Below, piece by piece: positions 1,070 through 22,847 of a stretch of DNA of 64,000 nt (the stretch's first letter is position 1; each line of letters starts with the position of its first letter). Location of the stretch: contig NC_020891.1 of assembly GCF_000355695.1 (NCBI RefSeq), forward strand, positions 992,001 through 1,056,000. The letters are read 5' to 3'. The position numbers and the translations under genes are program-made. The notes beneath the pieces are model-generated. The model saw only the letters and a program-made list of their open reading frames with translations. It was not told where the DNA came from and made no database searches. The stretch is from Clavibacter nebraskensis NCPPB 2581 (lineage in GTDB: Bacteria > Actinomycetota > Actinomycetes > Actinomycetales > Microbacteriaceae).

Positions 1070-1112
1070 GGTCCTCCATCGCGCGGGTGTCGGGTCGGCC
1101 CGCGGGAGGACC

Positions 1113-1118
1113 ATCGTA
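1113..1118 (-). promoter_or_regulatory. putative -10 hexamer for the GT4 gene
   Basis: TACGAT on the minus strand fits the actinobacterial TANNNT -10 consensus and would give a leader of about 37 bases including the GGAGG site. No convincing -35 is visible. Confidence 0.3.
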
Positions 1119-4878: not shown

Positions 4879-5331
4879 ATGGCCGCCTCCCGCATCCGCG
4901 CGCTCCTCCGCGACGAGCGCGTGGCGTTCCTCCTGGTCGGCGGCTTCAACACCGCCTTCGCGTTCCTCCTCTTCGCGGGGCTCGCCGCCACCGCGGGCCG
5001 GGCGCTCGACGCGGCGGGGCTCCCGGTGCTCGGGTCGCTCGTGCCGCTCGCCGGGAGCTACGCCGTGGCCGTGCTCGTGGCGTTCGCCCTGTACCGGCGG
5101 CTCGTGTTCCGCGTCCGCGGCCACGTGCTGCGCGACCTCGCGCGCTTCGTGTCGGTGTACGCCGTGTCCATCACGCTCAACGCCGTCTCGCTGCCGCTGC
5201 TCGTCGCGACGGGCGTCCCGCGTCTCATGGCCCAGGCGCTCATCGTGGTGGTGATCACGCTCATCAGCTACGTCGGGCACCGCTGGTTCTCGTTCCGCCG
5301 GCCCCCCGACGAGGGCCGGGCCGGCCGCTGA
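4879..5331 (+). CDS. GtrA family membrane protein
   Basis: A 150-residue protein with about four transmembrane helices. It carries the GtrA signature DERVAFLLVGGFNTAFAF near the N-terminus and GHRWFSFRRP near the C-terminus. GtrA proteins are thought to flip or hold polyprenyl-phosphate sugars for surface glycan decoration. It starts at ATG 4879 and sits between divergent rmlB and rmlC. A paralogue (19563-20033) shares the N-terminal DERVAFLLVGGFNT and the C-terminal GH-FSFRRP motifs. The substrate is unknown. Confidence 0.85.
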   Translation: MAASRIRALLRDERVAFLLVGGFNTAFAFLLFAGLAATAGRALDAAGLPVLGSLVPLAGSYAVAVLVAFALYRRLVFRVRGHVLRDLARFVSVYAVSITLNAVSLPLLVATGVPRLMAQALIVVVITLISYVGHRWFSFRRPPDEGRAGR

Positions 5332-5965: not shown

Positions 5966-6829
5966 ATGAAGGGCATCATCCTGGCCGGCGGCTCCGGCAC
6001 CCGGCTCTGGCCGATCACGAAGGGCATCAGCAAGCAGCTAATGCCGATCTACGACAAGCCGATGATCTACTACCCCCTGTCGACCCTGATGATGGCGGAC
6101 ATCCGCGAGGTGCTCATCATCACGACGCCCGAGTACAACGACCAGTTCCGGGCCCTGCTCGGCGACGGCTCGCACCTCGGCATGCGCATCGAGTACGCGG
6201 TGCAGCCCTCGCCCGACGGCCTCGCGCAGGCCTTCGTCATCGGCGAGGAGTTCATCGGCGACGACTCGGTCGCGCTCGTCCTCGGCGACAACATCTTCCA
6301 CGGGGCCGGCCTCGGCACGAGCCTCCGGAGGAACACCGAGGTCGACGGCGCGCTGATCTTCGCGTACCACGTGGCCGATCCCACGGCCTACGGCGTGGTC
6401 GAGTTCGACGAGGACTTCACGGCCGTGTCCATCGAGGAGAAGCCCGCGGCGCCCAAGAGCGCGTACGCGGTGCCCGGCCTCTACTTCTTCGACAACGACG
6501 TGGTCGAGATCGCGAAGGGCATCGAGCCCAGCGAACGCGGCGAGCTCGAGATCACCGCCGTCAACGACCACTACCTCCAGGCCGGGCGCCTCCACGTGCA
6601 GGTGCTGGACCGCGGCACCGCGTGGCTCGACACCGGCACGTTCGAGAGCATGATGCAGGCCTCCGAGTACGTGAAGGTCATCGAGGACCGTCAGGGCTTC
6701 AAGATCGGCTGCATCGAGGAGATCGCGTACCGCGCCGGCTGGATCGACCGCGACGCGCTCGAGGAGCTCGCGCGTCCGCTCATCAAGAGCGGCTACGGGC
6801 GCTACCTCGTCGCGCTGCTCGAGGCGTAG
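5966..6829 (+). CDS. rmlA: Glucose-1-phosphate thymidylyltransferase
   Basis: A 287-residue nucleotidyltransferase making dTDP-glucose from dTTP and glucose-1-phosphate, the entry step of the rhamnose pathway. The N-terminal signature [30 protein letters not shown] contains the nucleotide-binding loop and catalytic Arg/Lys. VLGDNIFHG and EEKP motifs and [14 protein letters not shown] near residue 220 are also present. The length is standard for the short RmlA class. It is the second gene of the rmlC-rmlA operon. With rmlB and rmlD on the other strand the pathway is complete in this window. Confidence 0.96.
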
Positions 6830-6857: not shown

Positions 6858-7835
6858 TCAGCGGGCGGTGAGCTCGCCGGACTGCAGGCCGGAGACGAGG
6901 GCCTGCGCCGTGATGTGGATCCCGGCGGGCAGCGGCATCGTGTCGCGCTCGTCGAGGTCCGGCCACACGACGCTCTCGAGGCGCAGGTCGACCGCCTGGT
7001 AGCCCGCGAGGGGCGACAGGCCGAGCATCACGTGCGGCCGCGCCTTGCCGAGGGCCGTGAAGTGCCCGAGCAGCGCGCTGATGGTGACGGGCTGGCCGGA
7101 CGCCAGGATCTTGACGACGTGGGCGTCCGCCGGCCGCTGCAGGAGGCGCGCGGTCGCGTCGCGCACGAGGCCGGCGCAGTCGTCGGCGTAGAGGTAGTCG
7201 CGCACCGTCTCGAGCGGCACGTAGATCGACGCCGGCGTGGGGGAGAGGTTGGCGCGGGCCAGCTGCGTGATGAGGCCCTGCGGCTTGCCTACGGCCTGGC
7301 GCGGACCGTACAGGTTCGCGATGCGCCCGATCAGCGTGCGCACGCCGGCGCGCTCGCCGAACGCGCGCACGAGGCCCTCCGCGCGGAGCTTCGCCTCCCC
7401 GTAGGGCGCGAGCGGCCGGGGCTCCGTGTCCTCCGTGAAGGGCGGCTGGGCGGCTCCCGCGTACACGCCGCCCGCGGACGACGAGTAGAACAGCGCGCCG
7501 CCCGGGGCCGGGGCGGTCGCGGCGGCCCGGGCGATCTCGTCGAGCACCGCCTCGAGCTGCCCGAGCTCGTGGTCCAGCTGCGCGCGCGTGCTGCCGGTGA
7601 CCGCGGCGCCCGCGCACCACATGACGGCCCAGCTTCCGGCGGCGCGGCCCGCCTCGAGGAGCCGCTCCGCCTCGGTGCGCGCGGCCGCCCGCATCACGGA
7701 CTCGTCCGTGGTCGACCAGGGCAGCGGCCGGGCGGCGACGGGAGCCCACCGGGGATCCGCCGTCATGGCGTCGAGCAGCGACGCGCCGAGGAGGCCGCGC
7801 GCGCCGATGATCCAGACGGGGACGGCGGACGTCAT
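6858..7835 (-). CDS. NAD-dependent epimerase/dehydratase family protein
   Basis: A 325-residue extended SDR protein. The N-terminus VWIIGARGLLGASLL is a GxxGxxG Rossmann loop. FYSSSAGGVYAG and YGEAK supply the Ser/Tyr/Lys catalytic set, followed by GRIANLYGPRQ and DYLYADD. It probably modifies a nucleotide sugar used in the neighbouring glycan genes, but the substrate cannot be inferred. ATG at 7835 overlaps the TGA of the upstream glycosyltransferase in an ATGA junction. It ends convergently with rmlA. Confidence 0.8.
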   Translation of the reverse strand: MTSAVPVWIIGARGLLGASLLDAMTADPRWAPVAARPLPWSTTDESVMRAAARTEAERLLEAGRAAGSWAVMWCAGAAVTGSTRAQLDHELGQLEAVLDEIARAAATAPAPGGALFYSSSAGGVYAGAAQPPFTEDTEPRPLAPYGEAKLRAEGLVRAFGERAGVRTLIGRIANLYGPRQAVGKPQGLITQLARANLSPTPASIYVPLETVRDYLYADDCAGLVRDATARLLQRPADAHVVKILASGQPVTISALLGHFTALGKARPHVMLGLSPLAGYQAVDLRLESVVWPDLDERDTMPLPAGIHITAQALVSGLQSGELTAR

Positions 7836-8863
7836 ACGTGCCCGCGCGGCGGACGCCCGTGCGGGCCGTCCAGGGGGTCGCGCACGATCAGGTACGCGGG
7901 CCGGCCCTGCGCCATGCCGACCGAGACGCCGATGTACTCGGCGATGATCCCGAGGGAGAACAGGATGATGCCGCTCGACGCGAGGATCGTGACGATGGTC
8001 GACGCCCAGCCGGCGGGCACCGAGTTGTCGGTGAGGCGGCTGACGACGATGACGATCACGAAGATCAGCGCGACGACGAGGAATAGGGCCCCGAGCACGC
8101 TCACGGCCCGGAGGCCCCGCGTGCCGCTGGAGAGCACCATGCGCCAGAAGTGCGAGAACAGGCGGCGGGGCGAGTAGCCGGACTGGCGCTCGCCCTCGTC
8201 GCGGAGGGTGATGTCGCACGTCGAGATGCGGTTCGCGACCCAGCCGAGCGCGATGTCGAGGTACACGCCCGACCCCGCGTACGCCGCGACGCTCCGGCCG
8301 ACGGAGCCGAGCACGAGCCGGTAGCTCTGGAACTGCTCGGCGTCCTGGTCGGAGGACATCGCGTTGAGGGCGACCTTCGCGCCGCGCGACGCGATGTTCC
8401 GCAGGAACCCGTGCGACGGCGTGTTCGTCGGCTTCGCGTAGACGACCGAGGCGAGGTCGCGCATGGCCACGTCGAGCATGTCGGGGATGAAGCCCGGGTC
8501 GTGCTGGCCGTCCTCGTCGAGGGTGACGATCCAGTCGCCGCCTGACGACGCCATGCCCGCGAGCGTCGCGGCGTGCTGCCCGAAGTTGCGGCTCAGCCAG
8601 ATGGGCCGGACGAAGGGGTGCAGGCGCTTGAGCTCGCGGAGGACGCGGGGGGATCCGTCGCGTCCGTTGTCGAAGACGAGGAGCACCTCGGTCACGGCGT
8701 AGCTGTGGCCGTCGCGCGTGATCTGCGGGACGGTGAAGGGCTGGATCTCGGCGATCAGCGCCTCGAGCGTCAGCTCCCCCTGGTACACGGGGATGACGAC
8801 GGAGACGGAGTGGTCGGGGGGCAGCACGTCGGCCCCGGCGTCCCGCGACTCGACGGCGCTCAC
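7832..8863 (-). CDS. GT2 glycosyltransferase with two C-terminal membrane helices (polyprenyl-phosphate sugar synthase type)
   Basis: A 343-residue GT-A enzyme of the DPM1/GtrB type. The N-terminus has VSVVIPVYQGELTLEALIAEI, then FDNGRDGSP, NFGQHAATLAGM and the DEDGQHDPGFIPDML motif that binds metal and nucleotide sugar. The C-terminus has two hydrophobic helices (about residues 250-280 and 285-310), typical of enzymes that load a sugar onto undecaprenyl phosphate. That would fit the two GtrA proteins in the window. GTG at 8863 overlaps the upstream stop (GTGA) and the downstream gene starts at its stop, so three genes here are coupled. Confidence 0.87.
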   Translation of the reverse strand: MSAVESRDAGADVLPPDHSVSVVIPVYQGELTLEALIAEIQPFTVPQITRDGHSYAVTEVLLVFDNGRDGSPRVLRELKRLHPFVRPIWLSRNFGQHAATLAGMASSGGDWIVTLDEDGQHDPGFIPDMLDVAMRDLASVVYAKPTNTPSHGFLRNIASRGAKVALNAMSSDQDAEQFQSYRLVLGSVGRSVAAYAGSGVYLDIALGWVANRISTCDITLRDEGERQSGYSPRRLFSHFWRMVLSSGTRGLRAVSVLGALFLVVALIFVIVIVVSRLTDNSVPAGWASTIVTILASSGIILFSLGIIAEYIGVSVGMAQGRPAYLIVRDPLDGPHGRPPRGHV

Positions 8864-9714
8864 GCGGCGCTCCCGGCCGAGCGCGACATGCGCCGTCCGA
8901 GGTAGAGGTAAACGAGCCGGCGGGAGAGCGCCTTGGCCCGGGCCATCATGTCGCCGAGCCGGACGTCCGCGCGGGAGACGACGCCGGGGTGCGCCTCGAG
9001 CACCCAGCGGTGGAACCCGGCGGCGGCGCTGGCCTGCTCGCCCGCGAGGCGCACGCTCCACTGCGAGTCGGAGATGCGGAAGCCCGCGAGGGCCTTCGGT
9101 CCGACGGACGCGAAGTCGCCGCGGAGCAGCACCTTCGCGTACGTGGTCTCGTCGATGAGGTAGGGCCAGCGGGAGTCCCACCAGCCCACGGCCTCGAGGT
9201 CGGCCCGGCGCATGAGCACGCAGCCCGGCTCGCCGAAGATGTTGGTGCCCGAGCGGATGGTGCGGCGGACGGCCGCGGCGCCCGTGATGGCGATGCGGGA
9301 TCCGGAGACGCCGTGGTCGCGCACCACCGGACGGCTGTCGGCGTCGACGATGTCGCGCGGGCTGGCGACGAGGACGACCGACGGCGACGCGTCGAGCTCG
9401 GCCACCTGGCGCTCGAGGATGGTGGGGTAGAGGAGGTCGTCGCCGCAGACCAGCTTGATCAGATCGCCCCGTGCCTCCTGGCTCACGCGGTTCCAGTTGC
9501 GGAGGGCGCCGCCGCCCGCGTCGGTGCGGAGCAGGCGGACGCGCGGCTCGTCGGCGTAGCGCTGCATCACGTCCCATGTGCCGTCGGTGGAGGAGTGGTC
9601 CGCGATCACGACCTCGAAGTCGGTGAACGTCTGCGCCAGCACGGAGTCCACCGTCTCCTGGAGGTAGTCGGCGTTGTTGTAGGCGGGGATGACGATCGAG
9701 ACGCGTGGGGCCAC
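8860..9714 (-). CDS. GT2 family glycosyltransferase
   Basis: A 284-residue GT-A inverting transferase with the classical N-terminus VSIVIPAYNNADYLQETVDSVLAQTFTDFEVVIADHSSTDGTW. VCGDDLLYP supplies the DxD-like motif, and GEPGCVLMRRADLEAVGWWD matches the acceptor-side loop. It has no membrane helices and probably works at the inner membrane face. GTG at 9714 is preceded by GAAGGAGAG at a good distance, which rules out the longer open frame. It is the first gene of a coupled three-gene set with the next GT2 and the epimerase. Donor and linkage are unknown. Confidence 0.87.
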   Translation of the reverse strand: MAPRVSIVIPAYNNADYLQETVDSVLAQTFTDFEVVIADHSSTDGTWDVMQRYADEPRVRLLRTDAGGGALRNWNRVSQEARGDLIKLVCGDDLLYPTILERQVAELDASPSVVLVASPRDIVDADSRPVVRDHGVSGSRIAITGAAAVRRTIRSGTNIFGEPGCVLMRRADLEAVGWWDSRWPYLIDETTYAKVLLRGDFASVGPKALAGFRISDSQWSVRLAGEQASAAAGFHRWVLEAHPGVVSRADVRLGDMMARAKALSRRLVYLYLGRRMSRSAGSAA

Positions 9715-9918: not shown

Positions 9919-9924
9919 TAGGGT
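9919..9924 (+). promoter_or_regulatory. putative -10 hexamer for the 738-residue membrane protein
   Basis: TAGGGT lies about 60 bases before ATG 9987 in a 272-base divergent gap. The rest of that gap (9715-9986) shows no ORF or repeat I can support. Confidence 0.3.
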
Positions 9925-9986
9925 GAGTCCCGCCCGCGCCGAGCCAGCCGGTCCGGGCGGTACACGACGAACGGATTCCTCTCCCC

Positions 9987-12203
9987 ATGCGCAGCAAGCT
10001 CTTGTGGCCGACCGCCGCCGTCGCCGCCACGGTGGTCGGCGCGACCATCCCGATGCTCTTCTTCACGGGCTACTACTTCGTGAACGACACCGAGGCCGGG
10101 GCGTACGGCCAGTGGTTCGAGATCGGCCGACGCATCCTCGACGGCAACTGGTCCCTGCTCAACCCGACCGTGTGGCAGTCCGGCAACTACCAGGCCGAGG
10201 GCGCGTGGGGCATCTACAGCCCCTTCCTCTGGGCCGTCGGCCTCGGCTCGCAGCTCATGTCGAACGCCGCCCTGTACTCGACCATCGTCAAGCTGGTCTG
10301 CCTCGCCATCGCCTCCGCCGGCCTCTACGTGCTGGCCCGCGCCTACGGCGTGACCCGGCCCTGGTCCGCGGTCGTCGCCACCGCCGTGCCCCTGGCCGGC
10401 TTCACCCTCTACTTCGACGCCCCCTCGTGGGTCAACGGCCTCATGGCCTGGGCGTTCTGGCCGCTCGCCGTCGGCCTGTCCCGACGCGTCGTGCGCACCG
10501 GCGCGAACCCCGTCGGCGCGGTGCTCGCGGCCGTCACCGTGGTGGGGATCGGCTACGCCGCCGCCACGCTCATGCTGGCCGCGGCGCTCGGCGCGCTGCT
10601 CGTGGAGGCACTCATCCGCCGCCGCCGTCCCGAGGTGCTCCGGGCCCTCGGGCTCTCGGTCATCGCCGGGCTCTTCGCGGTCCTGGTCCACCTGCCCGGG
10701 GTGCTCACCTCGTCCGTGTCGGGGCGCTCCAACTCCATCGGCAACGACGGCTTCCTCACGGTCGACCTCAGCGACCTCGCCATCTCGGGGATGCCCATGG
10801 GCAGCCCGTTCATGGAGTACTACGTGGGGAACATCCCGGGCGCCCCCATCACCTACATCTCCTGGCTGCTCCCGCTGCTCGTCCTCATCGACTGGCGCCG
10901 GCTCTGGGCCCTGCTGCGCGGGCGGCCGTCCATCCTCATCATCGGCGTCGCCGCGATCGCGGGCGTGCTCGCCCCGTCGGAGATCGGGCCGCTCCGCTAC
11001 CCGGTGCGCGTCGTCCCGTACCTCACGGCCGTCATCCTCGTCGTCCTGGCGCTCGGCTTCTCGCGCAGCCTGCGCCGCGTCCTCACCCGCCGCCACCTCT
11101 ACGCCGCCTGGGCGATCGTCGCCGTCAACGGCGCGCTGCTCCTGACGCAGGATCCGCGGGCGCTCAAGCCGGCGATCGTGGCCGTCGCGCTCGTCGGCGT
11201 CCTCGTGCTCCTGGTCTACGGGCTCGCCGTCGGCTGGCGCCCGCGTCGCGGTCCCGCCGTCATCGGCCGCGTCGCCGACCGCGCCCGCGCGACGCGGCGG
11301 TCCCGGTCCGCGGCCATGGCCGTCGTCGCGATCGTGGGCACGGTCGCCCTCCTCGTGCCGCAGCACTACCGCTCGCCGAAGTCCCCGCTGGAGACGTACG
11401 ACCTCCCCGCGGACGTCAGCGCCTACAGCACGCAGCTCCCGCGCGCGGAGGGCGACATCCTCGTCGTCGGCTTCCCGCAGACCACCGACTACGCGGAGAC
11501 CCTCCTCGGCAACTCCTGGTACGTCACGGGCAAGCCGGTCCAGAACGCGTACTCCTCCGTCTACTACCCGGGCTACGGCAACAAGGTCTGCATGCAGTTC
11601 AACGGCCTCACCTGCGGCGCGCTGTACGAGCGCCTGTTCCAGCCCGTGAAGGGATCCGACACCGGGGTTGACCTGGTCGACCTCATCGGCGCGAGCACCG
11701 TTCAGGTCATCAAGGCCCAGCGGGGGAGCGACCCCGCGAAGACCGTGGCGCGCAGCGACTGGGAGGACGTCCCGGCTGGGTGGAGCGTCGTCGAGGACAC
11801 CCCCACCACGCGCACGATCGTCCGCGACACCCCGCTGAAGGGCGCGGGCGGCGTCGTGTGGACGTCGGACGGCACGCGGGTGACGCTGCTGCACGACGAC
11901 CCGATGGGATCCACCTTCCGCGTGGACGCCGCCCCGGCCGACGGCGGCACGGTCGCCATGGCCCTCATCCCCTGGCCGGGGTACCAGGTGTCGGGCGCCG
12001 AGCTGCGCGCGAAGCCGGTCGACGGCTTCCTGCTCGGCGTGGACGTCTCCGCGGCGGACGTGGGGAAGACCGTCACGGTGTCGTTCTGGAGCCCGGGCTG
12101 GCAGATGCAGGTCGCGTCCGCCGCCCTCGTGATCCTCCTCACGGCGGCATGGGCGATCGGCCGCCTCGTCGTGCGCCGCCGCCGCCGGGTGGCCGCACGA
12201 TGA
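9987..12203 (+). CDS. Large polytopic membrane protein with extracytoplasmic C-terminal domain (function unknown, GT-C-like)
   Basis: A 738-residue protein with about ten or more hydrophobic helices in the first 460 residues, then a soluble region of about 200 residues (starting near YRSPKSPLETYDLP), and a final helix before an Arg-rich tail. An early acidic loop (FVNDTEAGAYGQWFEIGRRIL) after the first helix resembles the arrangement in membrane GT-C glycosyltransferases, where an Asp/Glu in loop 1 is catalytic. It overlaps the following GlfT1-like gene by ATGA, so it belongs to the glycan operon. I do not recognise the family. YfhO-like or a GT-C using a polyprenyl-phosphate sugar are the main possibilities. 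Confidence 0.75.
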   Translation: MRSKLLWPTAAVAATVVGATIPMLFFTGYYFVNDTEAGAYGQWFEIGRRILDGNWSLLNPTVWQSGNYQAEGAWGIYSPFLWAVGLGSQLMSNAALYSTIVKLVCLAIASAGLYVLARAYGVTRPWSAVVATAVPLAGFTLYFDAPSWVNGLMAWAFWPLAVGLSRRVVRTGANPVGAVLAAVTVVGIGYAAATLMLAAALGALLVEALIRRRRPEVLRALGLSVIAGLFAVLVHLPGVLTSSVSGRSNSIGNDGFLTVDLSDLAISGMPMGSPFMEYYVGNIPGAPITYISWLLPLLVLIDWRRLWALLRGRPSILIIGVAAIAGVLAPSEIGPLRYPVRVVPYLTAVILVVLALGFSRSLRRVLTRRHLYAAWAIVAVNGALLLTQDPRALKPAIVAVALVGVLVLLVYGLAVGWRPRRGPAVIGRVADRARATRRSRSAAMAVVAIVGTVALLVPQHYRSPKSPLETYDLPADVSAYSTQLPRAEGDILVVGFPQTTDYAETLLGNSWYVTGKPVQNAYSSVYYPGYGNKVCMQFNGLTCGALYERLFQPVKGSDTGVDLVDLIGASTVQVIKAQRGSDPAKTVARSDWEDVPAGWSVVEDTPTTRTIVRDTPLKGAGGVVWTSDGTRVTLLHDDPMGSTFRVDAAPADGGTVAMALIPWPGYQVSGAELRAKPVDGFLLGVDVSAADVGKTVTVSFWSPGWQMQVASAALVILLTAAWAIGRLVVRRRRRVAAR

Positions 12204-13162
12204 GCGGGCTGCGGCCGCGCGTCGTCGCGGTCGTCGTCGCCTGGAACCGCCGGGAGCTCGTCGTCGAGACCCTCGCGGCGCTGGCCGCGCAGACGGTGCC
12301 GCTGCACGAGGTGGTCGTCATCGACAACGCCTCGACGGACGGGTCGGCCGACGTCATCCGCGCGCGCTTCCCGGAGGTAGCGCTCACGACGCTGCCGACG
12401 AACACCGGGGGCGCCGGCGGGTTCACCGCGGGCATCGAGCGCGCGATCTCGGTCCACGACGCCGAGCTCGTGTGGCTGATGGACGACGACACCGTCCCGG
12501 ATCCCCCGGCGCTCGAGGAGCTGCTGCGCGCGCGCGCCGCCGCCCCGCGCGGCACGGTCGTCCTCGCATCCGCCGTGCGCTGGACGGACGGACGCCCGCA
12601 TCCCATGAACACGCCGCGCACGAGGCCGTCGGCGTCCCGGGCGAGCGTCGCGCGCGCCGCCCGGCGCGGCTGCACGCCCGTCCGCACGGCGTCCTTCGTG
12701 TCGATGATGGTCGAGGCCGACGCCATCCGCGCCCACGGCCTGCCGATGGCCGACTACTTCCTCTGGAACGACGACTTCGAGTACTCGGCGCGCCTCCTGC
12801 GCCGCGGACGCGGCTACCTCGTGCACGGGAGCACGGTGGAGCACCGCACCCGCACGTTCGGGTCGACGGACGTGGATCCCGGGGCCCGCTTCGTCTTCGA
12901 GGTGCGCAACAAGATCTGGATGCTGCGGCTCTCCCGCGCCCTCTCGCCCGCTGAGCGCGTGCTCTACGCGGGCGCGGCGCTCGTCGGCTGGGCGCGGACG
13001 ATCGCGCGCTCCGCGGACCGGCCGCTGCTGATCCGCGGCCTGGTGGACGGGATCCGCCAGGGACTGGGGAGCCGGCCCCGTCCGGCCGCGGAGGTCCTCG
13101 CCGGCCTCGGCGGCATCACCGAGGGCGTCCGCCGCATCGAGGCGGGTGCCGGTCGCGCCTGA
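12200..13162 (+). CDS. GT2 glycosyltransferase, GlfT1-like (galactofuranosyl/rhamnosyl transferase family)
   Basis: A 320-residue GT2 enzyme. The N-terminus VVAVVVAWNRRELVVETLAALAAQT and IDNASTDGS are followed by NTGGAGGFTAGIERA, a glycine-rich motif characteristic of the WbbL/GlfT1 group. WLMDDDTVP supplies the DDD metal site and FLWNDDFEYSARLLRRG the catalytic acidic segment. In mycobacteria GlfT1 adds the first galactofuranoses to the rhamnosyl linker. Proximity to glf and a GlfT2-like gene supports a similar role here, but this is by analogy. ATG at 12200 overlaps the previous stop. Confidence 0.82.
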   Translation: MSGLRPRVVAVVVAWNRRELVVETLAALAAQTVPLHEVVVIDNASTDGSADVIRARFPEVALTTLPTNTGGAGGFTAGIERAISVHDAELVWLMDDDTVPDPPALEELLRARAAAPRGTVVLASAVRWTDGRPHPMNTPRTRPSASRASVARAARRGCTPVRTASFVSMMVEADAIRAHGLPMADYFLWNDDFEYSARLLRRGRGYLVHGSTVEHRTRTFGSTDVDPGARFVFEVRNKIWMLRLSRALSPAERVLYAGAALVGWARTIARSADRPLLIRGLVDGIRQGLGSRPRPAAEVLAGLGGITEGVRRIEAGAGRA

Positions 13163-13230
13163 GCGCTCCCGCGCCGGACGGCGCGGCCGCCGGGCCGCAC
13201 AGCCGCCGGGATCCGCAGCCGGGCTCCCGG

Positions 13231-13236
13231 TAGACT
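13231..13236 (+). promoter_or_regulatory. putative -10 hexamer upstream of the GT2 gene at 13327
   Basis: TAGACT in GGTAGACTC, the same hexamer as before rmlC, would leave a leader of about 84 bases ending in GGAGG next to the GTG. Confidence 0.35.
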
Positions 13237-13326
13237 CTGGTGCTCGACGCGCCCCGGCCCGCCCGGCCGCCCGTCCGGCACCGACGGCCCCGCTGCGCAC
13301 GCAGCACGGAACATGATGGAGGACCC

Positions 13327-15405
<2,079 letters not shown>

Positions 15406-15406
<1 letters not shown>

Positions 15407-17424
15407 TGGCGGCCGCCGGCGAGGGGGCTCCCGTGGAGCTCGACCTCATCCAGCGCGTCATCCTGCCGTCCGAGCACGACCCGGACATCGTCCCGCTGTA
15501 CGTCGACGCGGACTACTGGACGAGCATCCCGGTGGCGCCCGAGAAGCGCCGGCGCTCGCCGCTGCGCGTGGTCGACTCGGACACGCACAACGCCGTCGTC
15601 CGCCTCAGCGACATGGGCATCATCAGCGCCATCCGCGGCGACCGCGGCTTCCAGGTGCCCCACCGCAGGAAGGTGTCGTTCGGCACCTACTTCAACGCGT
15701 TCCCCGCCTCCTACTGGCGCGCGAGCACCACGCTCGACGGCGTCGTGCTCGATGTGGAGACCCGCGGCGAGGGACAGGTCATCGTCTACCGCTCGAACGC
15801 GCGCGGCGTGATCCAGAAGGTCGACGGCGCCGCGGTGTCCGGCTCCGCCACCTCCCGCTTCGAGCTCCCGTTCACGTACTTCGCCGACGGCGGCTGGTAC
15901 TGGTTCGACCTGATGGGCGAGGAGGCCGACTTCGCGCTCGTCGAGGCCGGCTGGTACGCGCCGGAGGGATCCGCCCCCACGGCGGGTGCCGCGGGATCCG
16001 TCAGCATCGCCATCACCACGCTCAACCGCGCCGAGTACTGCGTGAAGCTCCTCACCGACATCGGCGAGAAGCCGGACGTGGCCGCGCTCCTCGACCACGT
16101 CTACGTCACCGACCAGGGCACCCAGAAGGTCGCGGACCAGCCGGCGTTCCCGCGCGCGCAGGAGCTGCTCGGCGAAAAGCTCCGCGTCATCGACCAGGCC
16201 AACCTCGGCGGATCGGGCGGCTTCTCGCGCGGCATGTACGAGACGCTCAAGGAGGGCGCGAGCGACTACGTCCTCGTCATGGACGACGACATCACGCTCG
16301 AGCCCGAGAGCATCCGCCGTGCCGTGAAGTTCGCGGACTACGCGCGGACACCCACGATCGTCGGCGGCCACATGTTCGACATGTACGACAAGAGCAAGCT
16401 CCACGCGTACGCCGAGGGCTTCGACATGTGGAACTTCATGTGGGGTCCCGTCACGCCCACACGCCACGACTTCAGCGCGTCGAACCTCCGCCAGACCCGG
16501 TGGATGCACCGCCGCGTCGACGCCGAGTACAACGGCTGGTGGATGTGCCTCATCCCCGTCTCCACGATCGAGCAGGTCGGCTTGTCGCTGCCCGTGTTCA
16601 TCAAGTGGGACGACGCCGAGTACGCGCTGCGGGCGAAGGAGATCGGCGTGCCGACCGTCACGCTCCCGGGGGCCGCCGTCTGGCACGTGTCCTGGGTCGA
16701 CAAGGACGACTCGCAGGACTGGCAGGCGTTCTTCCACGCGCGCAACCGCCTCGTCGCGGCGCTGCTGCACTCGCCCTACGAGCGCGGCGGCCGGTTCCTC
16801 ACGGCCAACCTCGCCACGGACGTCCGCCACCTGGTGTCGATGCAGTACTTCGCGCTCGCCGCCCGTCACGAGGCGTACCGGAACATCCTCCGCGGGCCGC
16901 GCGGCCTGCACGAGGACATGGTGACGCGCCTCGCCCGCACGCGCGAGCTGGCGCAGGGCTTCACGGACGGCGTCCCCATCAAGGACCGCGCCGCGCTGCC
17001 CGAGATCGTCGCGCCGGACAAGCCGCAGCGTCGACGCGGGGGAGGCGCCCCCTCGGGCATCTCCCGCCTCGTCTGGCTCGCCCGGACGGTGGCGCGCCAC
17101 GCGTTCGCCCCGCTCAGCCAGGCGGCGACGCGTGGGCCGGAGGCGCACCTCGCGTTCGAGGACGCCCGCTGGTGGGTCGTCCCCTCGTTCGACAGCGTCC
17201 TCGTCTCCAACGCGGAGGGGTCGGCGGCGCTCCTGCACCGTCGCGATCCCGTGCTCTTCCGCCGCATGCTGTGGACGAGCATGGTGCTCCGCTGGCGCAT
17301 CCTCGCCCGCTGGCCGCAGCTCAAGGCCGCCTACCGCGCGGCCCTGCCCACGGTCACGAGCCCGGAGACCTGGGCCCGCACGTTCGGCGTCGACCAGCCG
17401 CCGGCCGGCCGCCGGAAGAGGTAG
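15406..17424 (+). CDS. glfT2: Galactofuranosyltransferase, GlfT2-like
   Basis: A 672-residue protein built like mycobacterial GlfT2 (about 637 residues). It has an N-terminal beta-sandwich domain (to about residue 195), then a GT-A domain starting VSIAITTLNRAEYCVKLL, and a C-terminal helical part. Catalytic motifs are visible: MDDDI (D293-D295), NGWWMCLIP, WDDAEY (401-406) and VWHVSW (H427). GlfT2 polymerises alternating beta-1,5/1,6 galactofuranose on a decaprenyl linker. The start at ATG 15406 overlaps the glf stop by one base and is preceded by GAAGGA. The galactan product in this organism is inferred, not shown. Confidence 0.92.
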
Positions 17425-17569: not shown

Positions 17570-19399
17570 ATGCGGCGCGCGCGCCGACGCTCACGGTTGA
17601 TCGCCTGCATGGCCGTCTGGGCCGTCGCGCTCGGGGTCGGGCTCGTCGGCACGGGCACCGTCGGCGGCTCGGCCGATCCCGCGCAGGCGGCGTCCGGCGC
17701 GGACTTCGACCCCGGCATGATCATCAGCGACGCCAAATTCTACGACGGCGACGCGATGTCGCAGGGGGACATCCAATCCTTCCTGCAGGCGCGCGTCCCG
17801 AGCTGCGCCTCCGGCTACGTGTGCCTCAAGGGCTACGTGCAGAGCACGCCCGCGCGGGCGGCCGACAGCCGCTGCTCGGACCTGCAGGCGTCGCGCCTCA
17901 GCGGTGCCGACATCGTCTACTGGGTCGGCCGCGCGTGCGGCGTCAGCCAGGCCGCCCTGCTCGTGCTCCTGGAGAAGGAGCAGGGGCTCGTCACCGACAG
18001 CACGCCCACCGACCGCCAGTTCCGCAGCGCCACGGGCTACGGCTGCCCGGACACCGCTGCGTGCGACTCCCTCTACTACGGCTTCTTCAACCAGGTCTAC
18101 AACGCGGCGCACCAGTTCAAGGTGTACCAGTCCACGCCGACGCGCTGGAACTACCAGGCCGGGCGCAGCAACCGCATCCTCTGGCACCCGAACGCCGACT
18201 GCGGATCCTCGCAGGTCACCATCCGGAACCAGGCCACCGCCGGCCTCTACATCTACACGCCGTACCAGCCCAACCCGGCCGCGCTCCAGAACCTCTACGG
18301 CACGGGCGACTCGTGCTCCTCGTACGGCAACCGCAACTTCTGGCGCCTCTACACCGACTGGTTCGGCAGCACGAGCGACGGACCCGTGTCCGCCTTCGTG
18401 AAGGTCGCGACCGACGACAGCGTCTACCTGGTCAGCGGCGGGCAGAAGCACCCGGTCACCGACTTCGCCGTCTACCAGACGCTCTCCGCGCTCGGCGGGA
18501 TCAGCACGGTCGGCCGCTCCTACCTCGACGCTCTGGCCACGGGCGTCCCCGCGTCCGAGCTCGTGCGCGACCCGTCCGACGGCACGATCAGCCTCGTGCA
18601 GGGCGACAGGCAGCACGCGTTCTCCTCCTGCGACCTGGTCGCGTCGTACGGCTATAGCTGCTCGGCCGCCGTGCCCCTGGATCCGGGGCAGCTCCGCGCA
18701 GTGCCGCAGGCCGGCGCCATGAGCGCGTTCTTCACGCTGCCCGGCGACGGCACGGCGTACCTCCTCGACAGCGGCGTCAAGTACCCGGTGTCCAGCTGGT
18801 CGGCGCTCGTCGCGCTCAACGGCGGCGCGTCCGCCTTCGTCGCGCAGATGCGGTCCCAGGTCGGCGACCGGTACTCCACGGGCCACGTGGCGCTGGAGCC
18901 CGGGACGCTCGTGAAGTCGGCGAGCAGCGCCGACGTCTACGTCGTCGACGGGCTGAACCGGAAGGTCGGCGTGCCCGACTTCGCCGTCACCCGGGAGCTC
19001 GGCCTCGGCCAGGCGTACAGCACCGTGACCCAGGGCACCCTCGACGGGTACGCCCGGTCCGCGGCGAACCTGTCGCTGCTGGTGCGCTGCGGCGGCACCT
19101 CGTACCTCGCCACCCAGGGCGGCATCGTCGCCCTGGCGAACCCCGGGTCGACGGGCCTCCCCGTGACGGACCTCCTGCCCACCACGTGCCGCGCCCTCGA
19201 CGCGACAGGGGGCACGGTGACCGGTCCGGTGCTCGTGAAGAGCGCGACCGACCCCAGCGTGTACGTGCTCCAGGGTGGCCAGGCCCGGCCGGTCTCGAGC
19301 TGGGCCAGGCTCGTCGCCCTCGCGGGCACGTCGTCGCCGACCATCACCACGATGGGCGCCGCGGCACTCGCCCGGATCCCGGTCGGCGCGGCCTACTGA
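17570..19399 (+). CDS. Secreted hemagglutinin-like protein with C-terminal four-fold repeats
   Basis: A protein of 609 residues from ATG 17570; an in-frame TTG at 17546 behind GGGGGA is an alternative start. MRRARRRSRL followed by a hydrophobic stretch and AQAASG forms a Sec signal peptide. Residues about 45-290 are Cys-containing (MIISDAKFYDG, GYVCLKGYV, VLLEKEQGLVTD, GYGCPDTAAC, FFNQVYNAAHQFK), a region found in actinobacterial secreted proteins often annotated hemagglutinin or wall-associated. The C-terminal half has degenerate repeats of about 75-85 residues with the core VYL(V/L)xxGxKxPV, near 18418, 18751, 18934 and 19255. Its position inside the glycan island suggests a wall-binding or wall-processing protein. 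No enzymatic motif is certain. Confidence 0.75.
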   Translation: MRRARRRSRLIACMAVWAVALGVGLVGTGTVGGSADPAQAASGADFDPGMIISDAKFYDGDAMSQGDIQSFLQARVPSCASGYVCLKGYVQSTPARAADSRCSDLQASRLSGADIVYWVGRACGVSQAALLVLLEKEQGLVTDSTPTDRQFRSATGYGCPDTAACDSLYYGFFNQVYNAAHQFKVYQSTPTRWNYQAGRSNRILWHPNADCGSSQVTIRNQATAGLYIYTPYQPNPAALQNLYGTGDSCSSYGNRNFWRLYTDWFGSTSDGPVSAFVKVATDDSVYLVSGGQKHPVTDFAVYQTLSALGGISTVGRSYLDALATGVPASELVRDPSDGTISLVQGDRQHAFSSCDLVASYGYSCSAAVPLDPGQLRAVPQAGAMSAFFTLPGDGTAYLLDSGVKYPVSSWSALVALNGGASAFVAQMRSQVGDRYSTGHVALEPGTLVKSASSADVYVVDGLNRKVGVPDFAVTRELGLGQAYSTVTQGTLDGYARSAANLSLLVRCGGTSYLATQGGIVALANPGSTGLPVTDLLPTTCRALDATGGTVTGPVLVKSATDPSVYVLQGGQARPVSSWARLVALAGTSSPTITTMGAAALARIPVGAAY

Positions 19400-19562: not shown

Positions 19563-20033
19563 ATGGACCAGCACGCGCCCGACGTCGACGATCCCCGTCA
19601 GCCGACCCCGCTCCCGGGGATCCTGCTCCGGCTGATCAAGGACGAGCGCGTCGCGTTCCTGCTGGTCGGCGGCTTCAACACGGTGCTCGGCACGGCGTGG
19701 TTCGCGCTGCTCTACCTGCTGTGGGGCCACGCGATCCCGTACCCCGTCGTGCTCGTCATCGCCTGGGCGGTGCAGCTGCCGATCGCGTTCACGTTGCACC
19801 GCAAGCTCGTGTTCAAGGTGAGCGGCAACCTCCTGCCCGACTTCTCGCGCTACACGCTCGTGAACCTGGTGCCGCTGCTCGCCAACATGCTGCTGCTGCC
19901 GCTCGTGGTCGAGACCACGCCCCTGGAGCCGATCGTCGCGCAGATCCTCGTGACCATCGTGATCACCGTGGCGACCTACACGGGCCACAAGTTCTTCTCG
20001 TTCCGCCGGCCGCGCGACGAGGCGGTCCGCTGA
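19563..20033 (+). CDS. GtrA family membrane protein (second copy)
   Basis: A 156-residue, four-helix GtrA protein. It shares LIKDERVAFLLVGGFNT and GHKFFSFRRPRDE with the copy at 4879-5331. Conserved LHRKLVFKVSGNLLPDFSRYTLVNLVP lies in the central loop. ATG 19563 is preceded by GAGGAGAG at 4-5 bases. It is likely involved in moving or presenting polyprenyl-linked sugars for surface glycan modification. It ends 27 bases from a convergent O-antigen-ligase-like gene. Confidence 0.86.
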   Translation: MDQHAPDVDDPRQPTPLPGILLRLIKDERVAFLLVGGFNTVLGTAWFALLYLLWGHAIPYPVVLVIAWAVQLPIAFTLHRKLVFKVSGNLLPDFSRYTLVNLVPLLANMLLLPLVVETTPLEPIVAQILVTIVITVATYTGHKFFSFRRPRDEAVR

Positions 20034-20060: not shown

Positions 20061-21353
20061 TCATCCGGGCCGGTGCTGCTCCGGGAGCCCGTGCCGCCAG
20101 CTGCGGCCCTGCGCGGCCTTGACGGCGCAGATCACGAGCAGCACCCAGCCCCACTCGACGATCGTGACGCTCTCCGCGAGCGACGCGACCACGAGGACGA
20201 CGAGGACGAGGGCCGTCCAGACGTAGCCGACGCCGCGCTTGGTGGTCGCCAGCACCCAGGAGCGCCCGAGCGCCAGGGCGCAGAAGGCGGCGAACAGCAC
20301 GAGCCCGACCAGCCCCGCCTGCAGGTAGAGGTCGAGGTAGGCGTTGCGGCCGGTCTCCTGCGCACCCCGGCTGACCAGGTCGAGCGCCGTGTACGGGTAC
20401 GCGTCGCGGCGCCAGAACCCGACGAAGCCCCAGCCCTCGATGGTGTTGAGGTCGATGAGGCGCAGCATCTCCCGCCAGAGCGCCACGCGCTGCAGGTAGT
20501 CGGGCCGCGCCTGCAGCACCTGCAGCACGGGGGACCGGAACGCCACGACCAGCACCGCCGCCACCGCCGCGAGCACGAGGACCGCGCTGTTCGCGAGCGG
20601 ACGCGCCTGCCGTGCGAGGTGGCGGAGGCCGAGCAGCGCGAGGGCGGCGACGGCGAGCACGAGGAACGTGCCGAGGATCACCGACGACCGCGTGAGCGAT
20701 GCCACGAGGAGCGCGACGACCAGGGAGAAGACGCCGCGGCCGCGCGAGACGGACCGGGTCATGAGCTCGACCGCGAACGTCACCGCGGCGACGAGGGCCA
20801 CGATCCCGAGGGCGTTGCGCTCGCCGAGGAGCCCCTGGATCGGGCCGAGGCGCTCGAGGGCGCCGCGGATGCCGAGGAACGGGATGGGGCCGTCGATGAG
20901 GAGCCCCGCGAGCACCTCGAGGGCCAGGGACGACACGAGCACCAGCCGCAGCACGTCCCCGGCCGCGCGCACGATCTGGATCAGGTCGCGGACGACGCCC
21001 ACGTACACCGCGAGGAACGCGGACGCCGCGAGGTGGAGCACGCCGCCGACCGCGTCCGGCTGGTACGCCGCCCAGAGGAGCGTCGCGGCGCACCAGCCCA
21101 CCAGGACGAGCAGGGAGATCGGGAGGAGGCCCCGCCACTCCCAGTCGCCCCGCTTCGCCGCGAGGGATCCCGCGGCCATGGCCACCAGGGCCGTGACGAT
21201 CGCGACGAGCCCGGCCCAGCCCACGGTGGACCGGAGCGCGTGGGACAGGACGGCCGTGCCGAGGATGCAGTGGGTGAGCGCGGCCGAGAAGCGCGCCGAC
21301 CCGAGGAGGTCGGGCAGGCGCTCCGGAAGCGGGATCCGGGCGGGACGGGTCAT
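20061..21353 (-). CDS. O-antigen ligase/polymerase-like membrane protein (copy 1)
   Basis: A 430-residue protein with about 11-12 hydrophobic helices. It has the Wzy_C-type features IQGLLGERNALGIVALVAAV, then a large loop with LQARPDYLQRVALWREMLRLIDLNTIEGWGFVGFWR and YLDLYLQAGLVGLVLF. In Gram-positives such proteins polymerise or ligate lipid-linked glycans outside the membrane. The neighbouring upstream gene (21402-22847) is clearly a paralogue with the same GxxGNxN, WGWxGYW and AYLDxxLQxG motifs. A 48-base gap separates them, so they are probably co-transcribed. The substrate is unknown. Confidence 0.85.
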   Translation of the reverse strand: MTRPARIPLPERLPDLLGSARFSAALTHCILGTAVLSHALRSTVGWAGLVAIVTALVAMAAGSLAAKRGDWEWRGLLPISLLVLVGWCAATLLWAAYQPDAVGGVLHLAASAFLAVYVGVVRDLIQIVRAAGDVLRLVLVSSLALEVLAGLLIDGPIPFLGIRGALERLGPIQGLLGERNALGIVALVAAVTFAVELMTRSVSRGRGVFSLVVALLVASLTRSSVILGTFLVLAVAALALLGLRHLARQARPLANSAVLVLAAVAAVLVVAFRSPVLQVLQARPDYLQRVALWREMLRLIDLNTIEGWGFVGFWRRDAYPYTALDLVSRGAQETGRNAYLDLYLQAGLVGLVLFAAFCALALGRSWVLATTKRGVGYVWTALVLVVLVVASLAESVTIVEWGWVLLVICAVKAAQGRSWRHGLPEQHRPG

Positions 21354-21401
21354 GCGTCGGCCTTCACGGGCGATCGGCGGGGCACCGGGCGGCCGCGCGG
21401 A

Positions 21402-22847
21402 TCAGACGACGCGGGGGTCGGGGGCGCCGGACGCCGCCGACGCCGACGGGACGGCCGCGGGGGTCGGGGCGTCGACCGGGGGAGGCGACACGACCGCGGC
21501 GGCCCGCGGTGCCTCGGCCCGCACCGGACGGCGACGCGCCTCGTCGGGACCCGGGACGTCCTCGCGCGCGACCATGCTGGACCTCGTGGCGATCGCGATG
21601 ACGACGAGCAGCAGCCAGTTGCCCTCGTACAGCAGGCGGCTCTCCGCGAGGCTCTGCACGACCAGCGCGGTCATGAGCAGCAGCGGCGCGAGCGCGAGGG
21701 TGGAGTACGGCTCGACGCGGTCCCTGCGGTGCTGCGGTCGGTCGATGGCGGCCCACCAGGAGCGCACGTAGGTGGTCACGATGACGCAGGCGAAGGCGAG
21801 CAGCCCGATGGCCCCCACCTGCAGGAGGACGTCGAGGTACGCGTCGTGGGCCTGCAGGTACGTGACGCCGCTGCGGACGGCGAGCCCCTGGAACGGGTGC
21901 ACCCAGGGCGCCCAGTAGCCGATCCAGCCCCAGCCGACGACGGGGTGCTGCTGCGCGAGGCCGAGCACGGACTCCCAGATCTGGAACCGGCCCGTCAGGT
22001 CGGGGGAGCGGCCGAGGAGCTCGAACACCTCGGCGGTGCGCGTGGCGACGACGCCCGCGCCGACCACGGCCGCCACGGCGACGCCGCCCGCCAGCACGAG
22101 CCGCCCGCGGATGCCGACGCGTCGGGCGACGAGCGCGAGCGCGGCGACGACGCCGGTCATGAGGAGCGCGACGAGGACCGTTGAGCTGCCGGTGAGGGTC
22201 AGGGTGAGGAGGGCGACGAGGATCCAGAGCCCCGCGTCACGGCGGCGGACGGTGCGCGCGGCGTACTGCAGCGAGAAGACGATGAGGCCGAGCAGCGCCA
22301 CCATGGCGAGCAGGTTCGCGTTGCCGACGACGCCCTGGATCCGTCCGCCGCTGAGGAGCTCGCCGCGGGTCCACGCGAAGGCGGCCGGAGCGCGGGGCCC
22401 GTAGTCGGTGAAGAACGGCATGACCGGCCCGCGCACCACGACCGCGACGAACAGCTCGAAGGCGAGCGACAGCCCGAGGATGATCCGGAAGGCCCGGCCG
22501 AGCGCCTGCACGATCTCCGACCACGACAGCAGCACGACCAACGTCAGCGCCGCGATGGACGTCGACAGCTGGATGAGGACGCCGAGCGCCGACTCCGGCC
22601 GGTACTGCGACCACGCGATGGAGAGCACGGCGATCCCCGTGAACGCGAGCAGCGGGATCGGCAGCACGCGCACGCGCGGCAGGGGCCGCGAGCGGACGAG
22701 CAGGGTGACGCAGGTGACCAGCACGGCGAGCGCGATGGCGCCGAAGCCCCACCAGCTGAGGCTGTCGCGCCACATGTCACCGGCGAACGTGGTGACGAGG
22801 ACGAAGGTCGCGAAGCTCCGGAGGGCTCGGCGGCTGGCGGTGGGCAT
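21402..22847 (-). CDS. O-antigen ligase/polymerase-like membrane protein (copy 2)
   Basis: A 481-residue protein from ATG 22847, or 483 from ATG 22853 in the same frame. About 11 hydrophobic helices are followed by a cytoplasmic Pro/Ala-rich tail of about 65 residues. Ligase-family motifs are RIQGVVGNANLLAMVALLGL, SPDLTGRFQIWESVLGLAQQHPVVGWGWIGYW and AHDAYLDVLLQVGAIGLLAF. A TACCCT hexamer ends 7 bases before ATG 22847, so the second Met is favoured as a leaderless start. Frame upstream of 22853 is out-of-frame acyl-CoA dehydrogenase sequence. It is paired with the paralogue downstream. Confidence 0.85.
   Translation of the reverse strand: MPTASRRALRSFATFVLVTTFAGDMWRDSLSWWGFGAIALAVLVTCVTLLVRSRPLPRVRVLPIPLLAFTGIAVLSIAWSQYRPESALGVLIQLSTSIAALTLVVLLSWSEIVQALGRAFRIILGLSLAFELFVAVVVRGPVMPFFTDYGPRAPAAFAWTRGELLSGGRIQGVVGNANLLAMVALLGLIVFSLQYAARTVRRRDAGLWILVALLTLTLTGSSTVLVALLMTGVVAALALVARRVGIRGRLVLAGGVAVAAVVGAGVVATRTAEVFELLGRSPDLTGRFQIWESVLGLAQQHPVVGWGWIGYWAPWVHPFQGLAVRSGVTYLQAHDAYLDVLLQVGAIGLLAFACVIVTTYVRSWWAAIDRPQHRRDRVEPYSTLALAPLLLMTALVVQSLAESRLLYEGNWLLLVVIAIATRSSMVAREDVPGPDEARRRPVRAEAPRAAAVVSPPPVDAPTPAAVPSASAASGAPDPRVV

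What the first reader, a model, noticed from the sequence alone, without database searches (positions are those of the whole stretch)
12200..17424. Complete galactofuranan module (GlfT1-like, Glf, GlfT2-like) plus short Wzm/Wzt exporter in an apparently non-mycolic actinobacterium
Seen: UDP-galactopyranose mutase is coupled by a 1-base overlap to a 672-residue enzyme with the GlfT2 motifs MDDDI, WDDAEY and VWHVSW. A GlfT1-like enzyme with NTGGAGGFTAG lies 2 genes upstream, the full rhamnose pathway and an exporter without the Wzt C-terminal domain lie in the same island, and galE is at 25.6 kb. Known: in mycobacteria these proteins make and export the galactan of arabinogalactan on a rhamnosyl linker. 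Inference: this organism builds a galactofuranan-type wall glycan by the same logic, without arabinan or mycolate genes in view.
Basis: partly seen in the sequence, partly recalled or inferred. Interest (0 to 1): 0.7.

Follow-up and report, generated by a model that had tools for sequence, protein, structure and literature searches.

The report
Wall galactan locus with swappable decorations
A plant-associated bacterium without a mycobacterial outer membrane carries the genes for a mycobacterium-like galactofuranose wall chain, and comparison with its close relatives suggests that the genes that decorate the chain outside the cell are swapped between strains, in one relative for arabinan genes of the kind targeted by a tuberculosis drug.

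Summary
Glf, a clear GlfT2-family enzyme, rhamnose genes and a short Wzm/Wzt exporter are present. The genome belongs to Clavibacter, a non-mycolic genus; Emb and AftA models find nothing in it. The 'GlfT1' is a separate GlfT-like subfamily below the GlfT1 cut-off. GlfT2 outside mycolic bacteria is not rare: 55 of 394 sampled class genomes, besides 36 in two high-scoring families; the usual unit is glf-glfT2-wzm-wzt. New here: (1) the island lies in the block that holds LCP, rmlD and a wbbL-like gene in two mycolic-type genomes. (2) Within the genus (five genomes compared) the core genes are kept but the outside-decoration genes differ: a diverged YfhO-like allele in the window, an added GT-A/GT-C pair in three relatives, and in a fourth (G109) a cassette with an Emb arabinosyltransferase and a decaprenyl-phosphate phosphoribosyltransferase. 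I read it as a galactofuranan chassis with exchangeable extracellular decoration. Function is inferred; no chemistry was tested.

The parts
2..1114 (-). GT4 glycosyltransferase (runs off the window), beside the LCP gene that lies outside the window at genome 990560-991909
   Evidence: Pfam GT4 domains; LCP PF03816 98 bits at genome 991112-991669 and its ORF
1164..1907 (-). Wzt, short ABC ATPase of the exporter, no C-terminal glycan-binding domain found
   Evidence: ABC_tran; NF050108 168 bits against cut-off 400, two teichoic-export models 182.4 against 538 and 174.5 against 320; homologues beside glfT2
1894..2754 (-). Wzm, ABC-2 permease of the exporter
   Evidence: PF01061 74.9 bits; NF050109 61.2 against cut-off 380
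2858..3709 (-). rmlD
   Evidence: TIGR01214 284 bits, cut-off 224
3709..4698 (-). rmlB
   Evidence: TIGR01181 447 bits, cut-off 365
4879..5331 (+). GtrA family membrane protein 1, kept in G109 (78%)
   Evidence: PF04138 55.8 bits
5360..5962 (+). rmlC-like
   Evidence: TIGR01221 145.7 bits, just under cut-off 155.75
5966..6829 (+). rmlA; its end is the left limit of the exchanged block
   Evidence: TIGR01207 470 bits; alignment with G109 stops at 6812
6858..7835 (-). SDR sugar epimerase/dehydratase-like, not found in the fetched G109 locus
   Evidence: PF01370 81.4 bits
7832..8860 (-). polyprenyl-phosphate-sugar synthase-like GT2 (PgfS/ArnC type) with C-terminal membrane helices
   Evidence: PgfS 92.5 and ArnC 87.9 bits, both below cut-off; hydropathy
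8860..9711 (-). GT2 without membrane helices
   Evidence: PF00535 96.7 bits; hydropathy
9987..12203 (+). 738-aa polytopic protein, distantly YfhO-like (GT-C type by inference), overlaps the start of the GlfT1-like gene by 4 bases
   Evidence: no Pfam hit itself; homologue L120 (28% identical) passes YfhO PF09586 at 43.7 bits, cut-off 28.5; hydropathy; 62-63% identity to three congeners that are 91-92% identical to each other
12200..13162 (+). GlfT1-like GT2, separate subfamily
   Evidence: 77.9 bits to NF050113; motif; tree; profile comparison
13330..14175 (+). GT2 partner, in one reading frame with the GlfT1-like part in L098 and L073
14243..15406 (+). Glf, UDP-galactopyranose mutase, the only PF03275 match in the genome
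   Evidence: TIGR00031 348.5 bits
15406..17424 (+). GlfT2-family galactofuranan polymerase
17570..19399 (+). secreted protein of 609 aa, conserved N-terminal part, variable part behind
19563..20033 (+). GtrA family membrane protein 2, not found in the fetched G109 locus
   Evidence: PF04138 70.2 bits; (the G109 hit is at the place of GtrA 1)
20061..22847 (-). two O-antigen-ligase-like proteins (20061-21353 and 21402-22847); right flank of the exchanged block
   Evidence: PF04932 35 and 59.6 bits, cut-off 31.7; alignment with G109 resumes at 20079
22949..24124 (-). acyl-CoA dehydrogenase, a weak (29-31%) counterpart of one in the mycolic-type LCP block
25644..26612 (+). galE
   Evidence: TIGR01179 311.6 bits, cut-off 262.3

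Best explanation
The island makes, exports, decorates and very likely ligates a galactofuranose wall glycan. Proposed working: GalE and Glf supply UDP-Galf; a WecA-type enzyme starts the chain on polyprenyl phosphate; one or more of the GT2 enzymes (GlfT1-like plus its partner) prime it; GlfT2 polymerises it in the cytoplasm; the short Wzm/Wzt carries it across; an LCP enzyme coded next to the exporter joins it to peptidoglycan. [quoted passage not shown] The core genes are kept within the genus (diverged in G109) and the decoration part is exchanged: in G109 the corresponding block carries an Emb arabinosyltransferase and a decaprenyl-phosphate phosphoribosyltransferase. Shown: genes, families, motifs, synteny, block exchange. 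Inferred: every enzymatic step, the sugars, the acceptor, the order of steps, and the linker.
For: GlfT2 domains and aligned catalytic motifs; single Glf overlapping glfT2; Glf directly upstream of glfT2 in 74 of 80 named loci and Wzm directly downstream in 66 of 80, the window Wzm and Wzt being 71% and 79-80% identical to the pair directly downstream of glfT2 in two Cryobacterium loci; LCP gene next to the exporter genes and a block shared with the LCP-rmlD-wbbL region of G482 and G324 (synteny of Lcp1 in mycobacteria and C. glutamicum reported in PMC4981717, passages seen); WecA homologue; GlfT1-like and partner in one frame in 2 loci; YfhO link through L120; genus comparison: YfhO-like gene 62-63% where most neighbours are 87-99%, a two-gene cassette between GlfT1-like and its partner in 3 of 4 relatives, an Emb block in the fourth with limits at window 6812 and 20079; Emb 173.5 bits to solved EmbA; UbiA-type protein 390.5 bits against cut-off 207 for decaprenyl-phosphate phosphoribosyltransferase and 260 bits to solved 8j8j.
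Against: GlfT1-like fails the GlfT1 equivalog (77.9 against 330) and sits in a clade apart from mycolic-type GlfT1. No convincing WbbL. Wzm and Wzt fail the galactan-exporter equivalogs, and two teichoic-export models score slightly higher for Wzt (182.4 and 174.5 against 168; none passes). The exporter is not beside glfT2 in Clavibacter. The 738-aa protein has no Pfam hit itself, its alignment found no solved structure, and no fold could be computed. The genome has 4 LCP genes, so which one acts here is a guess from position. In G324 neither WhiB nor phosphomannomutase appeared in the 40 kb compared. Two other NCBIfam models named decaprenyl-phosphate phosphoribosyltransferase are not passed by the G109 protein (326.8 of 474, 159 of 234), and no NCBIfam model matched its Emb protein. 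No chemistry for Clavibacter walls was found in the library.
Confidence: 0.66

Rival explanations
1. The island makes an ordinary galactofuranan-containing capsule or exopolysaccharide that is not joined to peptidoglycan.
For: Two O-antigen-ligase-like genes flank the exchanged block; variable glycosyltransferase content inside conserved flanks is usual for capsule loci (general knowledge); no linker rhamnosyltransferase identified.
Against: LCP gene directly beside the GT4 and exporter genes, and the block shared with the LCP and rmlD genes of mycolic-type genomes; GlfT2 with an ABC exporter is the layout of wall galactan (pathway in PMC10951656, passages seen).
Confidence: 0.2
2. The exporter serves a teichoic-type polymer or a rhamnan, and Glf/GlfT2 make a separate glycan.
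For: Wzt scores 182.4 and 174.5 bits to teichoic-export models and 168 to the galactan ATPase model, all under cut-off; exporter and rml genes lie together, about 12 kb from glfT2; PMC6106888 (passages seen) states that Microbacteriaceae usually seem to use teichoic acid. Teichoic acid genes were not searched for here.
Against: Homologous Wzm and Wzt follow glfT2 directly in 66 of 80 named loci, 14 of 23 genus labels.
Confidence: 0.12
3. The decoration genes (7832-12203, GtrA proteins) modify another polymer, such as a lipoglycan, and are only neighbours of the galactan genes.
For: YfhO/GtrA systems act on LTA and WTA elsewhere (PMC8035078, passages seen); a relative of the 738-aa protein lies near glfT2 in only 9 of 80 loci.
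Against: Overlap of the YfhO-like and GlfT1-like genes; the block exchange places Emb, which in mycobacteria builds the arabinan carried by galactan (recalled), in the corresponding block of G109.
Confidence: 0.25

Closest known systems
Mycobacterial and corynebacterial arabinogalactan core pathway (Glf, GlfT1, GlfT2, Wzm-Wzt, Lcp1)
   Same: Glf-GlfT2 pair, three-domain GlfT2, short Wzt, rml genes, LCP gene in the LCP-rmlD block
   Different: GlfT1 replaced by another subfamily with a partner GT2; no clear WbbL; no AftA or Emb match in this genome; one island instead of two loci (two loci as in G482 and G324); YfhO-like decoration
glf-glfT2-wzm-wzt unit of Arthrobacter, Kocuria, Rothia and relatives (found here in named genomes)
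   Same: homologous Glf, GlfT2, Wzm, Wzt
   Different: in the window the exporter lies at the far end of the island next to the LCP gene; more glycosyltransferases and a decoration set
Multi-component transmembrane glycosylation systems (CsbB-GtcA-YfhO type)
   Same: membrane GT2, GtrA-type proteins, a YfhO-like polytopic protein in one island
   Different: sequence link to YfhO only through the homologue L120; acceptor and sugar unknown
EmbA/B/C and decaprenyl-phosphate phosphoribosyltransferase (in congener G109, not in the window)
   Same: all three Emb Pfam domains, shared DDGY and TPxKWxHHFG motifs; UbiA-type protein over one equivalog cut-off of that name
   Different: outside mycolic bacteria, 25-29% identical to the mycolic-type Emb compared, next to a 478-aa membrane protein and a GT4

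Membership tests
GlfT2 | Glft2_N, GT-A and GlfT2 domain 3 together | tested here: met
   116.1, 69.3 and 129.5 bits, all over cut-off
GlfT2 | DDD, WDD and WH motifs in register with solved GlfT2 | tested here: met
   aligned to 4fix; invariant in the 16 sequences aligned
GlfT2 | alternating beta-1,5 and beta-1,6 Galf polymerisation | not testable with these tools
   needs an enzyme assay
GlfT1 | NCBIfam equivalog NF050113 | tested here: not met
   77.9 bits, cut-off 330
GlfT1 | groups with mycolic-type GlfT1 in a tree | tested here: not met
   own clade of 12 rows at 96/97; the two mycolic-type GlfT1 group with a Nocardioides protein at 97/92
GlfT1 | NxGG[AS]GG and DDD signature, closer to GlfT1 than to WbbL | tested here: met
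   profile comparison 99.4% against 97.9% probability
Galactan exporter Wzm-Wzt | equivalogs NF050108 and NF050109 | tested here: not met
   168 of 400 and 61.2 of 380 bits
Galactan exporter Wzm-Wzt | genetic linkage of homologues to glfT2 | tested here: met
   66 of 80 named loci directly downstream; in the window itself about 12 kb away
Arabinogalactan pathway (this genome) | Emb and AftA arabinosyltransferases | tested here: not met
   no match to PF04602 or PF12250, C. glutamicum control rings; the same PF04602 model does detect the G109 protein at 221.8 bits
Arabinogalactan pathway (this genome) | WecA and WbbL for the linker | tested here: inconclusive
   WecA homologue, 113.8 bits of cut-off 326; WbbL search gives three weak hits
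Arabinogalactan pathway (this genome) | LCP gene in the LCP-rmlD block | tested here: met
Arabinogalactan pathway (this genome) | mycolate synthesis genes | not tested
   non-mycolic status rests on the genus (recalled)
Multi-component transmembrane glycosylation | GT-A with membrane helices, GtrA protein, GT-C-type protein | tested here: inconclusive
   GT-C fold could not be modelled
Emb arabinosyltransferase (G109) | PF17689, PF04602, PF14896 | tested here: met
   36.1, 221.8 and 89.4 bits, cut-offs 25 each; no NCBIfam model matched

The most novel reading that the evidence does not exclude
A galactofuranan chain with its exporter and LCP ligase is an old, shared wall chassis of actinobacteria, and what is hung on it outside the cell depends on exchangeable GT-C cassettes. 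Mycobacterial arabinogalactan would be one glycotype of this chassis; in Clavibacter the same locus switches between YfhO-type decoration and an arabinan cassette, so that a non-mycolic member of the Microbacteriaceae would make an arabinogalactan-like polymer.
Probability: 0.4. Interest if true: 0.82.

Novelty: new variant of a known kind. Interest (0 to 1): 0.62.

Why it matters
Arabinogalactan is usually discussed as a hallmark of mycolic bacteria, and its arabinan synthesis is a tuberculosis drug target (both recalled). If the galactan is a general actinobacterial chassis with swappable decorations, its evolution, the choice of side sugars and the carriers that flip them can be studied in non-mycolic genera, where such mutants may be viable. 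The cassette of Emb, phosphoribosyltransferase, a 478-aa membrane protein and a GT4, found in a Clavibacter genome and in Quadrisphaera, is also a lead on how polyprenyl-phosphate-arabinose crosses the membrane.

Tried and rejected
Rejected: chance match (profile scores). Rejected: contamination as the source of the Emb block; G109 is one contig, 99% complete, 1% contamination, and the flanks on both sides align with the window at 90.1% and 87.9% of bases. Rejected: calling the window enzyme GlfT1 outright. Rejected: the claim that GlfT2 outside mycolic bacteria is itself surprising.

Led nowhere: structure prediction of the 738-aa protein; solved-structure search with its alignment; solved-structure search with the 478-aa protein of G109, no meaningful hit; WbbL search, weak hits only. 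Literature: searches returned no paper; in the listings (20 of 41 shown; 12 of 417 shown), 74 and 75 no title or start of abstract dealt with wall galactan of Clavibacter or its genes; passages of PMC6801904 and PMC6106888 gave none either. The library is open-access only; chemical work in subscription journals is not held. An ORF first taken for WecA was in the wrong frame and was replaced by the right one.

In one search no Glf passed the coverage filter in L054, L091, L099, L107 and L114; Glf was not directly upstream in L091, L099, L102, L107, L114 and L122. L122 was dropped from the GlfT2 tree because the start I gave yielded a short protein. Alignment A1 holds the window and 15 of the 29 other family loci. 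WbbL and own_788k join on long branches in the GT2 tree. L046 covers only part of the island, and the fetched pieces of G034 and G166 do not reach the LCP gene. The names mycolic-type, WbbL and GlfT1 for genes of G482 and G324 come from position, similarity and Emb hits in the same loci, not from a taxonomic name.
Full report
WHAT IS THERE. The window is positions 992001-1056000 of a 3,063,596-base single-contig genome, 73.7% GC in the window. Among named relatives of its GlfT2 is Clavibacter michiganensis subsp. tessellarius at 92% identity, and a genome of the same genus label (G166) is 95% identical, so I place it in Clavibacter. PMC6106888 lists a 3.06 Mb genome for C. michiganensis nebraskensis (passage seen), which fits in size; the species is not proven. 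The described genes are at the stated places, with the one-base overlap of glf and glfT2. Family scores put Glf and GlfT2 beyond doubt, and the DDD, WDD and WH motifs align with solved GlfT2 4fix. There is one Glf and one Glft2_N match in the genome.

WHAT IS LESS CERTAIN. The GlfT1-like enzyme reaches 77.9 bits against a cut-off of 330. It carries the NxGG[AS]GG and DDD signature of GlfT1 and GlfT2, which the two mycolic-type WbbL proteins lack. Its profile is nearer to GlfT1 than to WbbL (99.4 against 97.9% probability), but its clade of 12 is separate from mycolic-type GlfT1, which groups with a Nocardioides protein. It stands in one reading frame with the next GT2 in Kineococcus L098 and Actinomyces L073, so the two probably work together. 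Wzm and Wzt fail the galactan-exporter equivalogs. A mycolic-type WbbL finds three weak hits in the genome (28-30% identity). A WecA homologue, under the WecA model's cut-off, lies between tsaC and the ATP-synthase genes.

HOW COMMON. In the family, 46 of 199 sampled genomes have Glft2_N; in the class, 91 of 394. By best score these fall in two groups: 36 genomes in two families at 191-224 bits (mycolic type, by inference; G482 and G324 belong to the larger family) and 55 genomes at 45-135 bits. In a tree of 41 GlfT2 proteins the 8 mycolic-type ones are one side of a branch at 100/100. In the 80 best named loci of 579 relatives, Glf lies directly upstream in 74 and Wzm directly downstream in 66. 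Of these loci 38 are Arthrobacter, so the numbers are not independent; by genus label they are 20 and 14 of 23. Having this pathway outside mycolic bacteria is therefore not unusual in the class.

THE SETTING. Just outside the window lie birA, a PH-domain protein, GtrA, purK, purE and an LCP gene (named from sequence start and from matches), followed by the GT4, Wzt, Wzm and rmlD of the window. In mycolic-type genome G482 the same block holds birA, PH, GtrA, an acyl-CoA dehydrogenase, LCP, rmlD, a wbbL-like GT2, WhiB and phosphomannomutase; G324 has birA, PH, GtrA, purK, purE, the dehydrogenase, LCP, rmlD and the wbbL-like GT2, but no WhiB or phosphomannomutase match in the 40 kb compared. Identities range from about 25% (LCP) to 80% over 66 residues (WhiB); the dehydrogenase is only 29-31%. 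[quoted passage not shown] smegmatis, M. leprae and C. glutamicum (passages). So the Clavibacter galactan genes sit in the block that holds ligase and linker genes in mycolic bacteria.

THE EXCHANGED PART. Where covered, most proteins of G034, G166 and L046 are 87-99% identical to the window; lower are the secreted protein (80-82%), one ligase-like protein (84-92%) and, far lower, the 738-aa protein: 62-63% to the window, while the three are 91-92% identical to each other. The same three carry, between the GlfT1-like gene and its partner, two genes not found in the window: a 340-341-aa GT2 and a 617-672-aa protein. G109 differs more. Its alignment with the window breaks off at 6812, at the end of rmlA, and resumes at 20079; in between only the GlfT1-like gene (75.3% of bases), the stretch from its partner to GlfT2 (80.8%) and part of the secreted protein (67.6%) align. 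The SDR, the polyprenyl-phosphate GT2, the next GT2, the 738-aa protein and the second GtrA were not found in the 35 kb fetched. Instead G109 has a 1068-aa protein with all three Emb domains (PF04602 221.8 bits; 173.5 bits to solved EmbA; DDGY and TPxKWxHHFG shared with the mycolic-type Emb), a 478-aa membrane protein, a GT4, a decaprenyl-phosphate phosphoribosyltransferase (390.5 bits, cut-off 207, though two other models of that name are not passed; 260 bits to solved 8j8j) and a histidine-phosphatase-like protein. Quadrisphaera L092 has Emb (33% identical to that of G109), the 478-aa protein (37%) and the phosphoribosyltransferase (53%; 419.8 bits) beside glf-glfT2-wzm-wzt, and a GT4 that starts like that of G109. 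Of the 80 named loci Emb was seen in two, L092 and L095, which are close kin.

INTERPRETATION. The island looks like a galactofuranan chassis (synthesis, export, ligation) plus a decoration set of polyprenyl-phosphate-sugar synthase, GtrA and a YfhO-like GT-C-type protein, as in known multi-component transmembrane glycosylation (PMC8035078, passages). The 738-aa protein itself has no Pfam match; the link to YfhO runs through its homologue L120, whose best-scoring stretch is short, and its membrane layout is from hydropathy only. The exchange within one genus, with an Emb cassette in the corresponding block of G109, is the strongest argument that the decoration acts on the galactan. No step has been tested chemically. 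The mycobacterial steps used for comparison are as given in PMC10951656 (passages) and PMC7831098 (passages and one section).

VERDICT. Observation confirmed; interpretation partly supported. A new variant of a known kind: the galactan part is not unusual for the class; the exchangeable decoration and the Emb cassette in a non-mycolic congener are the parts a specialist would not expect. That arabinogalactan without mycolates occurs in some Pseudonocardiaceae is recalled, not looked up, and lowers the surprise somewhat.

Noticed in passing
L187:1412-9011 (G109 genome 978412-986011): Cassette of Emb, a 478-aa membrane protein without Pfam match, GT4, decaprenyl-phosphate phosphoribosyltransferase and a histidine phosphatase in a Clavibacter genome; the 478-aa protein recurs with Emb in Quadrisphaera L092 and may be a carrier-lipid flippase (guess from position).
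   Followed up: partly
17570-19399: Secreted 609-aa protein: N-terminal part about 55% identical to the counterpart in G109 while the part behind does not align, as if matched to the glycan; a KEQGL motif there recalls lysozyme-like domains (recalled, untested).
   Followed up: partly
27170-30265: 1031-aa protein with an N-terminal GT2 and a long polytopic part, next to WhiB; relatives lie near glfT2 in Microbacterium L107, L114 and L122.
   Followed up: no
L098:5460-7457, L073:160-2076: GlfT1-like and partner GT2 joined in one reading frame.
   Followed up: yes
L057: Contig labelled Sphaerisporangium whose GlfT2 groups with a Brachybacterium MAG protein near Micrococcaceae; perhaps mislabelled.
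   Followed up: no
G229, G303, G313, G406, G458, G552: Second, lower-scoring Glft2_N matches (61-79 bits, two in G406) in genomes of the mycolic-type family.
   Followed up: no
L111 (Nocardioides caldifontis): A protein grouping with mycolic-type GlfT1 stands upstream of glf-glfT2-wzm-wzt, with an LCP gene close by.
   Followed up: partly
PMC6106888: The paper says that Microbacteriaceae usually seem to use teichoic acid (passage); the GlfT2 distribution found here (46 of 199 family genomes) suggests galactan for a part of them.
   Followed up: partly
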